NCBI RefSeq assembly: GCF_009914315.1 | Contig: NZ_CP042596.1 | Span: 186,001 to 250,000 of the forward strand | DNA: 64,000 nt | Direction of reading: 5' to 3' | Origin: Granulicella sp. WH15 | Lineage (GTDB): Bacteria > Acidobacteriota > Terriglobia > Terriglobales > Acidobacteriaceae | Part shown: positions 29,780-34,092 of the stretch, piece by piece | Layout: the number at the start of each line of letters is the position of its first letter | Numbering within the stretch: position 1 is the first letter of the stretch | Translations under genes and position numbers: made by a program | Notes under the pieces: model-generated | What the model was told of the DNA's origin: nothing | What the model saw: only the letters and a program-made list of their open reading frames with translations | Databases searched by the model: none

Positions 29780-31048
29780 ATGAAGCATCGCGCCCTCGCG
29801 CTTGTGGCAACATCCCTTTGCCTTATTGCTCTCGCCTCAACCTCCGTACTGGCTCAGTCGAAGAAGACCGCCGAGCAGTTTCTCGCCGACCCTGCCGTCA
29901 AGGCCGTCATGCAGTCGATCCAGACCAACGAGCCGCACTTCATCGACGAAGAGGCGCGCATCACCGAGATTGCCGCGCCGCCCTTCCACGAGCAGACGCG
30001 CGCTGCCGAACTGAAGAAGCTCTTCCTCGCTGCCGGGCTCCAGAACGTACGCATCGACGCCACCGGCAACGTGCTGGGCGACCGTCCCGGCGTCTCAGCG
30101 CACCCGCGCCTCGTTATTGCCGCGCACCTCGACACTGTCTTCCCCGAGGGTACGGACGTGCATGTGAAGCGTAACGGCAATATGCTTGCGGCTCCTGGCA
30201 TCAGCGACGACGGCCGCGGCCTGGCCTCGATGCTGGCGCTCATATCGGCGCTGCAAGGCTCGAAGATCAGCACTCCCGGCACGGTCACTTTCGTGGCCAA
30301 CGTGGGCGAAGAGGGCCTGGGCGACTCGCGCGGCGTGAAGGCGCTCTTCAACGACACGCTCAAGGGCCAGATCGATGCGTTCATCTCGATCGACGGCACC
30401 GACCCCTCGCGCATCGTCAACGTGGGTGTGGGCAGCTACCGCTACAAGGTCACTTTTACCGGACCTGGCGGGCATAGCTACGGAGCATTCGGGCTGGTGA
30501 ACCCGGCCAACGCGCAGGGCCTCGCCATCGCGAAGATCGCTCATATTCAGGTGCCGACCAAGATCAAGACCACCTTCAACGTCGGCCGCATCGGCGGCGG
30601 TACGTCAGTCAACTCGATTCCGTTTGAGACGTGGTTCGAGTTCGACGAGCGCTCGTCGGACCAGGCCTCGCTCGATGAGGTGGATGCGAAGTTCAAGAAG
30701 GCCGTTGCGGACGGTGTGGCCGAGGAGAACGCGCTGCATCCGGGCAAGGGCACCATTACGGTGAAGCTCGAGACGGTGGGCAATCGTCCCTGTGGCAACA
30801 CGCCTGCGGATGCGGCAATCGTGAAGGCGGTGGGGGCGTCGATTACGGCGATGCACCTGGGCAAGCCGGAGCTGGAGGCCAGCTCGACCGACTCGAATGT
30901 GCCGATGCACCTCGGCATCCCTGCGGTGACGATGGGGGGCGGTGGTGTTGGGTTGAATGCTCATGCTCTGAGCGAGAGTTTTGATGCGACGGATTCGTAT
31001 AAGGGTGTGCAGAATCTGCTGCTGACGACGTTGTTGCTGACGCAGTAG
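29780..31048 (+). CDS. Secreted M20-family metallopeptidase
   Basis: 422 aa with Sec signal MKHRALALVATSLCLIALASTSVLA, so likely periplasmic. All M20 ligand motifs are intact: AAHLDTVFP (His, Asp), ISDDGRG (bridging Asp), GEEGLGD (catalytic and ligand Glu) and a late NAHALSE His. The lid domain lies at about 200-320 (GPGGHSYGAFG). Similar to peptidase T-like tripeptidases, with specificity not provable. ATG 29780 follows TTGGAGA. It contrasts with the M20 relative upstream that has lost ligands. Confidence 0.9.
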   Translation: MKHRALALVATSLCLIALASTSVLAQSKKTAEQFLADPAVKAVMQSIQTNEPHFIDEEARITEIAAPPFHEQTRAAELKKLFLAAGLQNVRIDATGNVLGDRPGVSAHPRLVIAAHLDTVFPEGTDVHVKRNGNMLAAPGISDDGRGLASMLALISALQGSKISTPGTVTFVANVGEEGLGDSRGVKALFNDTLKGQIDAFISIDGTDPSRIVNVGVGSYRYKVTFTGPGGHSYGAFGLVNPANAQGLAIAKIAHIQVPTKIKTTFNVGRIGGGTSVNSIPFETWFEFDERSSDQASLDEVDAKFKKAVADGVAEENALHPGKGTITVKLETVGNRPCGNTPADAAIVKAVGASITAMHLGKPELEASSTDSNVPMHLGIPAVTMGGGGVGLNAHALSESFDATDSYKGVQNLLLTTLLLTQ

Positions 31049-31064
31049 GGGTTTTTGCTTTTGG

Positions 31065-31090
31065 AAAAGCCCCGTCTCGACGGGGCTTTT
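31065..31090 (+). terminator. Intrinsic terminator
   Basis: AAAAGCCCCG (31065-31074) / CGGGGCTTTT (31081-31090), 10-bp stem with TCTCGA loop, after the M20 peptidase gene. The A and T runs allow function in both directions. Confidence 0.9.
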
Positions 31091-31108
31091 CTGCGTGAAG
31101 AGGTTTTT

Positions 31109-31375
31109 ACGCGCAGCGTCGAGCACCGCACGAAGTGCCGCCCGCCCGGCGCGAGGGCGTTTTTGCTGTTGCTTCTATGGCCGAGAGAAGAAAGCATACC
31201 TCGGGGCTAAAGCCCGGACCTACCCCAGAAGCAACCGCAACGGCAGAAGCAAAGACAACAGCAAAAGCAGATTCCTCCGCTTCGCTCCTGAATGACAACC
31301 AAGAAAACAAGCAACGGCAAGTGCGTCCTCACGCCGGACGGGCGGCACTTCGTGCGGTTTTGGACGTTGCGCGTG
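31109..31375. repeat. 267-bp mosaic of dispersed repeats A, C, D and A
   Basis: Reverse A unit (ACGCGCAGCGTC at 31109), C unit (31189-31235, CCTCGGGGCTAAAGCCC), D unit (about 31268-31310, GCAGATTCCTCCGCTTCGCT) and forward A unit (ending GACGTTGCGCGT, 31364-31375). The outer ends form 12-bp inverted repeats with one mismatch. Both ends carry GCGC where most copies have GCGA, suggesting that they evolved together. Confidence 0.85.
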
Positions 31376-32983
31376 TTAAGACTGAAGGAAGGCTGACAGA
31401 TCAGTTCGGGCTACCTTGGTTTGATCGCCGGTGGCGAAGGTCTTCACCGTCAGGATGCCGCTGGTCAGCTCGTCCTCGCCCAGAATCACTACGCGGCGAG
31501 CGGCCTTGTCGGCTGCCTCGAAGCTCTTCTTCAGGCGGAAGCTGCCGTCTCCCAGCTCCACCGACAACCCGGCCCGGCGCAGCTCCCGAGCCAGTGCCAG
31601 CGCAGCCGCGTTCTGAGCGGTGCCCATGGGGGCGATGTACGCGTCCAGCTTCTTCGTCTCCGCCGTCTTGGCCTGCGCTTCCAGCGTCAGGATCAGGCGA
31701 TCTTCACCAATGGCGAAGCCGATCCCCGGAGCCTTGGGGCCGCCGAGCATCTCGCTCAGCCCGTCGTAGCGGCCGCCGCCCAGCAGCGCGTTCTGCGTGC
31801 CCAGGCCGCTGCCGTCCGGCACCGTGAACTCGAAGGTGGTGCGGGTGTAGTAGTCCAGCCCTCGCACCAGCCGCGGGTTTACGTGGTAGGGCACGCCTGC
31901 CGCGTCGAGCGCCGCCAGCACCTGTCGGAAGTGGTCGGTCGAGGCCTCGTCCAGATAGTCGGCGATCTTCGGCAGGCCGTTAATCAGCTCCTGATCGTTG
32001 GGGTCCTTCGAGTCCAGCACGCGCAGCGGATTGGTCTCGGCGCGGCGCTGGTTGTCCTCGCACATCTGATGCTTGATGGGGGCCAGCGCCTCACGCAGCG
32101 CGGCCACGTAGCGGGGGCGGTCGGTGGCCGAGCCGACCGAGTTGACCTCCAGCCGCCAGCCGGTGACGCCCAGCTCATCGAGCAGCGTGGCCAGCATCTC
32201 CAGCACCTCGGCATCGCGGATGGCGGACTCCGCGCCGGAGCTGACCGGGCCGAGGACCTCCGCGCCGATCTGCCAGAACTGGCGGTAGCGGCCCCGCTGC
32301 GGGCGCTCGCGGCGGAACTGCGGGCCGATGTAAAAGAGCTTCTGGAGCTGGCCGGTGTCGCCGAGCTTGTGCTCGATGTAGGCGCGGACGACCCCGGCGG
32401 TGTTCTCGGGGCGCAGGGTCAGGAGCTGGGTACTAGTTTCGAATGTACCTGCCATCGGCTCGAGAAGAATGCTCGATGCCTCGTAACTTGATTGAGCCAA
32501 AGCATCGATTTTGCTTCTAGGTACAACTACTATGTGATTCAGCCCCAATAGCACAAGACATTCATGACGAGCGCGCAAGTCTACATCGATTGTAGTTGGA
32601 GGTTTGACGCGAAACTCAATGAAGATACGCTGATCAAAGTTTCGGGCAATGACAAATTCATCTGGGAGTGGCTTGATTGCGCCTATTCCAATTGGCGGAT
32701 CTTCGATCTCATATTGAGGGTTTGCTTGGAGCCATGTGCGTTTAAGAAGTTTGATTTCGGGACGGCCACCATCTTCCCAGGTGTACATCTCCTTGGAGAC
32801 AATATCGGTTTCTTCGCCCACGCCGCGGGCGAAGAGTTCGGTGGCTTCGATGATGGGGGTGCGGATCTCGCCGAAGCCGTAGCGGCTGAAGACGGAGCGG
32901 GCGGTGGCTTCTACGCGGTTCCAGAGATCGGTGTCGGGCGGCAGTAAGTCCCGGGTGCCGCGAACGGCCTTGAGAGTCGACAT
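31376..32983 (-). CDS. hisS: Histidyl-tRNA synthetase with a large insertion
   Basis: Charges tRNA-His. Class II catalytic core: KAVRGTRDLLPP at the start, TLRPENTAGVVRAYIEH and FRRERPQRGRYRQFWQIGAE (motif 2), histidine-binding RGLDYYTRTTFEF, LLGGGRYDGLSEMLGG, motif 3 GIGFAIGEDRL, then a C-terminal anticodon-binding domain. It is 535 aa against the usual 420-430. The excess is one block at about residues 76-186 between EMYTWEDGGRP and LLTLRPENT. That block is in frame, about 47 percent GC by hand count, and unlike any HisRS part I know. Confidence 0.95.
   Translation of the reverse strand: MSTLKAVRGTRDLLPPDTDLWNRVEATARSVFSRYGFGEIRTPIIEATELFARGVGEETDIVSKEMYTWEDGGRPEIKLLKRTWLQANPQYEIEDPPIGIGAIKPLPDEFVIARNFDQRIFIEFRVKPPTTIDVDLRARHECLVLLGLNHIVVVPRSKIDALAQSSYEASSILLEPMAGTFETSTQLLTLRPENTAGVVRAYIEHKLGDTGQLQKLFYIGPQFRRERPQRGRYRQFWQIGAEVLGPVSSGAESAIRDAEVLEMLATLLDELGVTGWRLEVNSVGSATDRPRYVAALREALAPIKHQMCEDNQRRAETNPLRVLDSKDPNDQELINGLPKIADYLDEASTDHFRQVLAALDAAGVPYHVNPRLVRGLDYYTRTTFEFTVPDGSGLGTQNALLGGGRYDGLSEMLGGPKAPGIGFAIGEDRLILTLEAQAKTAETKKLDAYIAPMGTAQNAAALALARELRRAGLSVELGDGSFRLKKSFEAADKAARRVVILGEDELTSGILTVKTFATGDQTKVARTDLSAFLQS
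32426..32758 (-). other. Low-GC in-frame insertion within hisS
   Basis: Encodes about 110 residues (from EIKLLKRTW to TFETSTQ) interrupting the HisRS catalytic domain just before TLRPE. Two 60-base lines counted by hand gave 28 and 29 G+C, against well over 60 percent in the flanks. There is no Cys/Ser at the start and no His-Asn at the end, so it is not an intein. No stop codon occurs in frame. Confidence 0.75.
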
Positions 32984-33002
32984 AAGAGTTTCATTTTATA
33001 GA

Positions 33003-33068
33003 AACAACGGCAAAAGCGCCCTCGCGCCGGGCGGGCGGCACTTCGTGCGGTTCTCGACGCTTCGCGTG
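33003..33068 (+). repeat. Dispersed repeat A, forward copy (near consensus)
   Basis: AACAACGGCAAAAGCGCCC, CGCCGGGCGGGCGGCACTTC, GTGCGGTTCTCGACGCTTCG, then CGTGAAAGG. Located between the divergently placed ends of hisS (5') and the carbonic anhydrase-like gene (3'). Confidence 0.88.
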
Positions 33069-33076
33069 AAAGGCTT

Positions 33077-33589
33077 TTAAGTCTCTTTCAGGTACATCTC
33101 CACGTAATCCAGATAGTTGTGCGCGTACTTCAGGATCGACTCCATATCCGCGTCGGTGATGGAACGGCGGATCTTGCCCGGAACCCCGGCCACCAGCGAG
33201 CGCGGCGGAATCACCGTCTGCTCCGGAATCACCGAACCGGCGGCGATGATCGACCCCTCGCCAATGCGGGCATTGTTCAGGATCGTCGCGCCGATGCCGA
33301 CCAGCACCTTATCCTCCAGCACGCAGCCGTGAACGGTGGCGTTGTGGCCGATCGTCACCAGCTCACCGACGATGACCGGGTAGAGGTAGCGCATCCCGTG
33401 CAGCACGGCGCAGTCCTGCACATTAGACCGCGCGCCGATCCGGATGGCGTTCACATCGCCGCGCAGGACGGCGTTCATCCAGACGCTGGCGTGCTCGCCG
33501 AGCTGGACGTCGCCGATAACCTGCGCGCTGATATCGACATAACAGGTGGCCGGAACGGTGGGGCGGATTCCCTGATAGCTACGGATCAT
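33077..33589 (-). CDS. Gamma-carbonic anhydrase family protein
   Basis: Left-handed beta-helix protein of 170 aa with hexapeptide repeats (IGDVQLGEHASVWMNAVLRGD, IGIGATILNNARIGEGSIIAAGS). The histidine ligands of gamma-carbonic anhydrases appear at QDCAVLHG and GHNATVHG. Trimeric, metal-binding, probably CO2/bicarbonate related; many family members have unproven activity. Cytosolic, no signal peptide. Monocistronic between repeats and the divergent rpsU promoter region. Confidence 0.9.
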   Translation of the reverse strand: MIRSYQGIRPTVPATCYVDISAQVIGDVQLGEHASVWMNAVLRGDVNAIRIGARSNVQDCAVLHGMRYLYPVIVGELVTIGHNATVHGCVLEDKVLVGIGATILNNARIGEGSIIAAGSVIPEQTVIPPRSLVAGVPGKIRRSITDADMESILKYAHNYLDYVEMYLKET

Positions 33590-33728
33590 GGTTTGGATTC
33601 CTCGGCGTTGATTCTAGCCGGTTGCGACATATCGTAAAAAAAGTACGAGTTTTCTGATACATCCGGCCCACATAGGGGGTAATCTAGAAGATAGCCTGAT
33701 TAAGGCCCGATTGTGAGGTGTATTTCCC

Positions 33729-33926
33729 TTGGCAGAGATTCGCGTTCAGGAAGGCGAACCCCTCGAAAATGCCCTGCGCCGCTTCAAGCGCAAAGTCCAG
33801 ACCGAAGACATTATCAAAGAGGTCAAGCGTCACTCCTTTTATCTGAAGCCAGGCGAGAAGAAGCGTGTTAAAGAGGCGCTCGCCCGGAAACGTAATCGCA
33901 AGAAGGTCCGTAAGGAACAGGACTAG
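33729..33926 (+). CDS. rpsU: 30S ribosomal protein S21
   Basis: Small basic protein of the 30S platform near the anti-Shine-Dalgarno end of 16S rRNA. It is 65 aa, with AEIRVQEGEPLENALRRFKRKVQTEDIIKEVKRHSFYLKPGEKKR and a lysine/arginine-rich tail. The start codon is TTG (33729), preceded by GAGGTG. A strong terminator follows, so it is transcribed alone. Confidence 0.96.
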   Translation: MAEIRVQEGEPLENALRRFKRKVQTEDIIKEVKRHSFYLKPGEKKRVKEALARKRNRKKVRKEQD

Positions 33927-33946
33927 CTTGTAAGCAACACGGTTGG

Positions 33947-33977
33947 GCCGCCTTCAGCGATGAAGGCGGCTCTTCTT
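33947..33977 (+). terminator. Intrinsic terminator of rpsU
   Basis: GCCGCCTTCA (33947-33956), GCGA tetraloop, TGAAGGCGGC (33961-33970), followed by TCTTCTT. Confidence 0.9.
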
Positions 33978-34092
33978 CCCAACACAAGTACCCCGACAAC
34001 TACTCCCCAGACAGATCGTACCCGGGCCCGTTCCTCTGCTGTATCAGCAGACACGCTTGTTTCAAGTGGATGGCCCATACGGGAGAAGTGAG

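What the first reader, a model, noticed from the sequence alone, without database searches (positions are those of the whole stretch)
32426..32758. Low-GC insertion of about 110 codons inside the catalytic domain of HisRS
The sequence shows an uninterrupted in-frame block (residues about 76-186) between EMYTWEDGGRP and LLTLRPENT, which are close together in ordinary HisRS. The protein is 535 aa against the usual 420-430. Hand counts give about 47 percent GC in the block against more than 60 percent around it, so it looks foreign. It has none of the splice residues of an intein. It could be a new appended domain acquired by transfer, or a mobile element that uses in-frame insertion in an essential gene. 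I recognise no homolog.
Basis: partly seen in the sequence, partly recalled or inferred. Interest (0 to 1): 0.72.

Follow-up and report, generated by a model that had tools for sequence, protein, structure and literature searches.

The report
Swappable nuclease-fold domain inside HisRS
In some soil acidobacteria the essential enzyme that loads histidine onto its tRNA carries an extra, highly variable folded domain, shaped like a DNA-cutting enzyme but apparently not a cutter, whose versions have been swapped between genera at one exact spot in the gene.

The parts
31376..32983 (-). hisS, histidyl-tRNA synthetase, 535 aa, the only HisRS-family gene found in the genome
   Evidence: ORF; Pfam PF13393, PF03129; TIGR00442 hisS 454.5 bits against cut-off 286.75; own-genome PF13393 search gives two matches, both inside this one ORF
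32768..32983 (-). HisRS N-terminal part, residues 1-72, through EMYTWEDG
   Evidence: window residues 3-72 aligned to 1kmm positions 4-73
32426..32767 (-). inserted domain, residues 73-186; predicted alpha-beta-beta-beta-alpha-beta fold of PD-(D/E)XK type
32756..32776 (-). entry linker, residues 70-76 (EDGGRPE); similar start in other carriers
   Evidence: second position D in 31 of 31, fifth position R in 29 of 31 inserts
32414..32449 (-). exit linker back into the HisRS strand, residues 179-190 (GTFETSTQLLTL); other carriers typically G-N-F-F-x-S-S-Q-S-L-T-L
   Evidence: alignment A4, junction DNA
31376..32425 (-). HisRS remainder: TLRPE, motif 2, RGLDYY, motif 3, anticodon-binding domain, all readable in the sequence (motif names recalled)
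   Evidence: window residues 187-534 aligned to 1kmm positions 77-420

Best explanation
The block is an extra folded domain in the beta-hairpin turn that precedes the TLRPE histidine-binding strand of an otherwise complete, essential HisRS. SHOWN by computation: it belongs to one very divergent domain family found, in the searches made, only at this turn of HisRS and only in a minority of genomes of this acidobacterial family; it is predicted to adopt a PD-(D/E)XK-type alpha/beta fold; its allelic types do not follow the HisRS core or the genus, so DNA for this domain has been exchanged between hisS genes. INFERRED: exchange happens by homologous recombination through the conserved hisS flanks, which lets an empty allele become occupied, an occupied one empty, or one type replace another without harming the essential enzyme. 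INFERRED: the domain is no longer a nuclease (no invariant catalytic set) and works as a binding appendage, for nucleic acid or a protein partner, whose partner varies, which would keep many divergent versions in circulation.
For: Same turn in 31 carriers with sequence in hand, each an open HisRS frame, three of them cut by contig ends; 32 of 398 family genomes by profile, 12 of 79 genera, one match each. Two AF2 models of inserts 25% identical to each other both give mostly PD-(D/E)XK structures as best VIA rows (XisH 8.4, NucS 7.8; NucS 9.3, EndoMS 8.7, XisH 7.1; superfamily labels recalled). The core tree of 85 HisRS (quick method) needs 7 changes for 8 genera together, the minimum, while the carrier label needs 23. 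The insert tree rejects genus clades by AU test: g1 p=0.006, g22 1.5e-6, g18 1e-70, g21 2.6e-5, g243 1.3e-4. Cross-genus pair G506/G512 72% insert, 71% core; same-genus G000/G017 23% insert, 85% core. In 114 class-A proteins, 30 of 78 pairs with cores at least 90% identical have inserts at most 60% identical. Closely similar genes with and without insert: G512 against G491, 89-95% DNA identity in the flanks; G451 against G001, 86-98% by window. Insert dN/dS 0.09-0.20 in 6 pairs and 0.40-0.51 in the 3 g235 pairs, against core 0.08-0.25. In the register the Lys position is V 27, I 3, F 1 of 31.
Confidence: 0.6

Rival explanations
1. Selfish or neutral passenger: descendant of a homing-type nuclease domain that once spread between hisS alleles without splicing, tolerated because it sits in a turn; now catalytically decayed and kept only because it must fold.
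For: Fixed site, empty and filled alleles side by side, exchange between genera, nuclease-type fold, low GC in 30 of 31 carriers.
Against: No shared catalytic residues across 31 members; no co-conversion signal; the G506 insert has no relative in viral contigs, plasmids or phages, the window insert none in viral contigs or plasmids; decayed passengers should be lost quickly (inference), yet subtypes are widespread and constrained.
Confidence: 0.25
2. Active nuclease: the domain still cleaves DNA or RNA (for instance tRNA held by the same enzyme), with a substituted or migrated catalytic Lys.
For: Fold; window variant reads P107-D108 ... E123-F124-R125, a PD...ExR pattern (sequence); E69 and R108 are at 1.00 conservation, rounded, in 120 class-A inserts.
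Against: In the family alignment no acidic or basic residue inside the domain is invariant (only D2, W15, V110, L145 are, D2 and L145 lying in the linkers); Lys position V/I/F in 31 of 31. A free nuclease fused to every HisRS molecule would be costly (inference).
Confidence: 0.12
3. Ancestral domain inherited vertically, lost many times and evolving fast; no exchange.
For: g235 inserts stay together (98/54); G506/G512 synonymous divergence is similar in insert and core (0.62 and 0.66), and their genera lie in one starred clade of the core tree; deep divergence between subtypes.
Against: Genus clades rejected for 5 of 6 genera; same-genus inserts 23% identical with cores at 85%, while different genera share inserts at 67-72%; cores at 90% or more with inserts at 60% or less in 30 of 78 pairs.
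Confidence: 0.1
4. Artefact, intein or intron.
For: None found.
Against: Independent genomes and metagenomes carry it; no intein domain in Pfam or NCBIfam scans; no Rfam intron, 4 hits all below gathering scores; single open frame.
Confidence: 0.01

Closest known systems
PD-(D/E)XK (restriction-endonuclease-like) fold: XisH (2inb, 2okf) and NucS/EndoMS C-terminal domain (2vld, 5gke, 5gkj)
   Different: no sequence match; Lys of (D/E)xK absent in the family in the register used; seen only inside HisRS, never free-standing, in the searches made
RPB5-type jaw domain of RNA polymerases (inactive nuclease-like fold; label recalled)
   Same: appears repeatedly in the VIA list (8q3b, 7vba, 7f4g): a nuclease-type fold used structurally
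   Different: another protein, from eukaryotes and a virus in the rows shown; no sequence relation found
Insertion domains of aminoacyl-tRNA synthetases (editing domains, ProRS INS; recalled)
   Same: extra folded domain inside the catalytic domain of a synthetase
   Different: those are fixed in large clades and have known roles (recalled); this one is sporadic, hypervariable and exchanged between genera
Inteins with homing endonucleases (recalled)
   Same: fixed site in an essential gene, filled and empty alleles, lateral exchange
   Different: no splicing domain or residues here; the domain presumably stays in the protein
Rickettsia palindromic elements (recalled; only a search listing seen)
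   Same: in-frame insertion kept in the protein
   Different: those occur at many loci per genome (recalled); this one matches once per genome

Membership tests
Histidyl-tRNA synthetase (class II) | hisS equivalog profile and conserved core on both sides of the insert | tested here: met
   TIGR00442 454.5 bits against cut-off 286.75; alignment to 1kmm positions 4-73 and 77-420
PD-(D/E)XK nuclease superfamily | alpha-beta-beta-beta-alpha-beta core fold | tested here: met
PD-(D/E)XK nuclease superfamily | catalytic PD ... (D/E)xK residues conserved | tested here: not met
   Lys position V/I/F in 31 of 31; E in 21 of 31; no invariant acidic/Lys set. Register inferred from alignment; window variant has PD...ExR. 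So: nuclease-like fold, not filed as a nuclease.
XisH family (PF08814) | sequence profile match | tested here: not met
   PF08814 not among Pfam hits of 17 inserts; hhalign against 3 XisH proteins P-value 0.25
Intein | HINT splicing domain and junction residues | tested here: not met
   no such family; junctions read W-E-D-G at the start and Q-x-L-T at the end in the window; required residues recalled
Group I/II intron or other structured RNA | Rfam covariance match | tested here: not met
   4 weak hits, all below gathering scores, 31000-34000
Homing element | fixed site with empty and filled alleles and lateral spread | tested here: met
Homing element | co-conversion of flanks | tested here: inconclusive
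   no excess at the junction at protein level; DNA windows of G000 resemble other genera 5' of the insert, but base composition confounds this
Homing element | sequence-specific cleavage of the empty allele | not testable with these tools
   needs purified protein
In-frame repeated elements (RPE-like) | copies in several genes of one genome | tested here: not met
   one match per genome in 32 of 32 carriers at E up to 0.01

The most novel reading that the evidence does not exclude
A new kind of in-frame mobile domain: a nuclease-derived module that colonises one exact turn of an essential tRNA synthetase, spreads between genera by exchange of hisS alleles, needs no splicing because it folds out of the way, and diversifies like an immunity or specificity module, so that HisRS doubles as a carrier for a variable recognition domain.
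Probability: 0.25. Interest if true: 0.9.

Novelty: new variant of a known kind. Interest (0 to 1): 0.7.

Why it matters
Synthetases with extra domains are common, but those domains normally mark whole clades (recalled). Here an essential, single-copy synthetase carries a hypervariable domain that is present or absent between closely similar genes and is swapped between genera at one precise site. That either reveals a variable recognition module riding on HisRS (and asks what it recognises), or a splicing-free way for nuclease-derived passengers to live inside essential genes. Both are testable by deleting the domain from a sole-copy gene.

Tried and rejected
Searched for homologues outside HisRS: Pfam, NCBIfam and PHROGs scans, PDB sequences, 5.8 billion proteins with the window insert (only itself), with the 17-insert profile (3 HisRS fragments) and with the G506 insert (260 hits, the 120 listed all with PF13393); these searches need shared 5-residue words and have length limits. 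Viral contigs with both inserts, plasmids with both (76, 77), phages with the G506 insert only (78): none. A first genome-contig scan found nothing; a second found two carriers and a hit in a Sumerlaeota MAG, which is chance: the ORF there looks dihydroorotase-like (label recalled). In the phylum scan with the 3-row profile one hit outside the window's own gene was under 0.001 (G135, 5.9e-5, in a poly(A)-polymerase-like ORF); it did not recur at E up to 0.001 with the 31-row profile. I opened one more of the weak ones (L041); the rest were not opened. Two weak hits in the genus lie in or beside trehalose-synthase-like and SIS/aminotransferase-like ORFs.

Tested whether the insert compensates for an unusual tRNA-His: tRNA-His is identical in carrier/non-carrier pairs G506/G578 and G512/G491, so not in those two pairs. 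The first pattern for this was wrong and found tRNA-Thr-like matches and noise; the second gave tRNA-His in 2 of 22 loci checked; one search did not recover tRNA-His of the window genome.

Tested for co-conversion: protein partial correlations negative at the junction; DNA block trees put G000 and G017 in a set with 9 rows of other genera in the 5' block, but composition differs strongly between rows, so I do not use this.

Foldseek alone was not decisive: best PDB E-value 0.012; for the second model gelsolin-type chains head the list. The VIA re-alignment carries the fold claim.

Rows dropped: G750 (a carrier, no locus, never fetched); G024, G759, G530 and G483 in the block trees (broken or partial genes; G008 was also listed for exclusion but had no sequence in the set); P0087 in the counts, after it dominated the count; near-identical rows too (103 of 114 kept); G568 is missing from A2 (17 of the 18 carriers then known, my pattern missed it) but is in A4. 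The 85-row set is enriched for carriers by my choice. Literature searches showed nothing on such a HisRS insert in the rows listed (searches listed only 10 of 98 and 8 of 53); no paper was opened; one look-up failed.

Full report
OBSERVATION. The window codes on the minus strand for a 535-aa HisRS (31376-32983). Its best NCBI family is hisS TIGR00442, 454.5 bits against a cut-off of 286.75. Against E. coli HisRS (1kmm) the alignment breaks cleanly: window residues 3-72 match chain positions 4-73 and residues 187-534 match positions 77-420. The extra block is therefore residues 73-186, window 32426-32767, at the turn just before the TLRPE strand. GC drops to 0.44-0.49 there against 0.65-0.76 on one side and 0.61-0.68 on the other; the insert is 0.47 GC and 0.41 GC3, the rest of the gene 0.68 and 0.88.

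SOLE COPY. A search of the own genome (one contig, 4,673,153 bases) with PF13393 gives two matches, both pieces of this gene. No second HisRS and no HisZ-type gene was found, so the inserted protein must do the cell's histidylation (inference from essentiality).

DISTRIBUTION. Searching 61 relatives with the whole HisRS showed most same-genus genomes with the plain turn and two others (G036, G017) with a long, different block. A profile of these three inserts found 4 strong carriers among 62 genomes of the genus. Searching 200 genomes of the order exposed more, and a profile of 17 inserts matched 32 of 398 genomes of the family, 12 of 79 genera, one match each; I read the gene in 31 of these 32. 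Outside the family none was found: a 31-insert profile matched 2 of 396 genomes of the phylum at E up to 0.001, both in the window's own family. In the protein collection the G506 subtype alone has 260 matches at E up to 1; all 120 listed carry PF13393.

ONE FAMILY. The 31 inserts in hand mostly begin with an ED-G-x-R-like linker and end in a Q-S-L-T-L-like linker, and share D2, W15, V110 and L145 (G506 numbering) as invariant columns. Pairwise identity is low: median 26% over 465 pairs, while their HisRS cores have median 73%. Insert GC is below flank GC in 30 of 31; G623 is the exception.

CATALYSIS. In the register suggested by the alignment, the (D/E)xK strand reads E-F/L-V-x-F: E in 21 of 31; the Lys position is V 27, I 3, F 1. 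In 120 class-A inserts E69, V71 and R108 are at 1.00 conservation, rounded. Independently of register, no acidic or basic residue inside the domain is invariant over 31 members. I therefore expect no nuclease activity in general. The window variant itself has PD (107-108) and E-F-R (123-125), so activity cannot be excluded for it.

EXCHANGE. The tree of 85 HisRS cores (insert removed, quick method) follows genera (7 changes for 8 groups together, the minimum; g1 and g23 are not each one clade), while carrier state needs 23 changes (the set is enriched for carriers). The insert tree does not follow genera: AU tests reject g1 (p 0.006), g22 (1.5e-6), g18 (1e-70), g21 (2.6e-5) and g243 (1.3e-4); g235 stays together. 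G000 and G623 are flagged there as long branches, so the g1 result is the weakest. Examples that need no tree: G017 (g1) and G580 (g243) 67% insert identity; G523 (g231) and G782 (g18) 72%; G000 and G017, same genus, 23% with cores at 85%. In 114 class-A proteins 30 of 78 pairs with cores at least 90% identical have inserts at most 60% identical, and 54 of 6441 pairs show inserts at least 75% with cores at most 75%. Closely similar genes differ by presence: G512 against G491, flanks 89-95% at DNA level; G451 against G001, 86-98% by window. At DNA level the filled allele replaces the turn codons without target-site duplication in the 9 carriers compared. G017 also keeps a 42-codon copy of the hisS start upstream of its hisS, with a PEGA-like ORF (label recalled) between, not found in the other loci held, many of which reach only 0.5-1.5 kb; this looks like a scar of imported DNA (inference).

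SELECTION. dN/dS (Nei-Gojobori) for 13 insert pairs: 0.09-0.20 for six pairs, 0.40-0.51 for the three g235 pairs, and not measurable (synonymous sites saturated) for four; core 0.08-0.25 in twelve, one saturated. Insert dN exceeds core dN in 12 of 13 pairs; G506/G512 is the exception (0.15 against 0.23). The domain is constrained but usually evolves faster than the core. Constraint alone does not prove function, because a passenger inside an essential protein must still fold.

NEGATIVE RESULTS. No co-conversion footprint at protein level: partial correlation with the insert is near zero next to the junction (0.004 and 0.035), 0.166 in the two more distant N-terminal windows, and highest at the C-terminal end (0.233). 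tRNA-His is identical in two carrier/non-carrier pairs. Nothing in viral contigs or plasmids for the window and G506 inserts, nor in phages for G506. No RNA family above its gathering score in the region. Eight literature searches showed nothing on this in the rows listed; no paper was opened.

READING. An accessory, catalytically degenerate nuclease-fold domain in the HisRS hairpin, whose versions are exchanged between hisS genes. Fold and exchange I hold at about 0.85; a binding role under diversifying pressure at about 0.5; a selfish or neutral passenger at about 0.25; an active nuclease at about 0.12.

Noticed in passing
window 13786, 21485, 28884, 31106, 33036, 35738, 40538, 48641: A 35-base sequence (CGGCACTTCGTGCGGTTCTCGACGCTTCGCGTGAA) occurs 8 times on both strands with up to 3 mismatches (0 expected in shuffles); copies in opposite orientation lie on either side of hisS (31106 and 33036). 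Looks like a repeated intergenic element.
   Followed up: partly
L032:4991-6057 (genome G017): A second, 42-codon copy of the hisS 5' end lies about 0.8 kb upstream of the insert-bearing hisS, with a PEGA-like ORF between; possible scar of imported DNA.
   Followed up: partly
L130:503-1849 (genome G142): HisRS with a 40-residue turn at the same site, unlike the domain and unlike the usual 15-20 residues; possibly a scar or an independent expansion.
   Followed up: no
window 31376-32788: The protein collection holds this HisRS as a 470-aa protein starting at Met66 (P0002), i.e. without the N-terminal 65 residues that the DNA encodes in frame; probably a start mis-call.
   Followed up: no
G024:C8:321567-322851: HisRS hits fall in separate pieces (186-391 and 388-533) whose positions overlap by a few bases, a frameshift or assembly error in that genome.
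   Followed up: no
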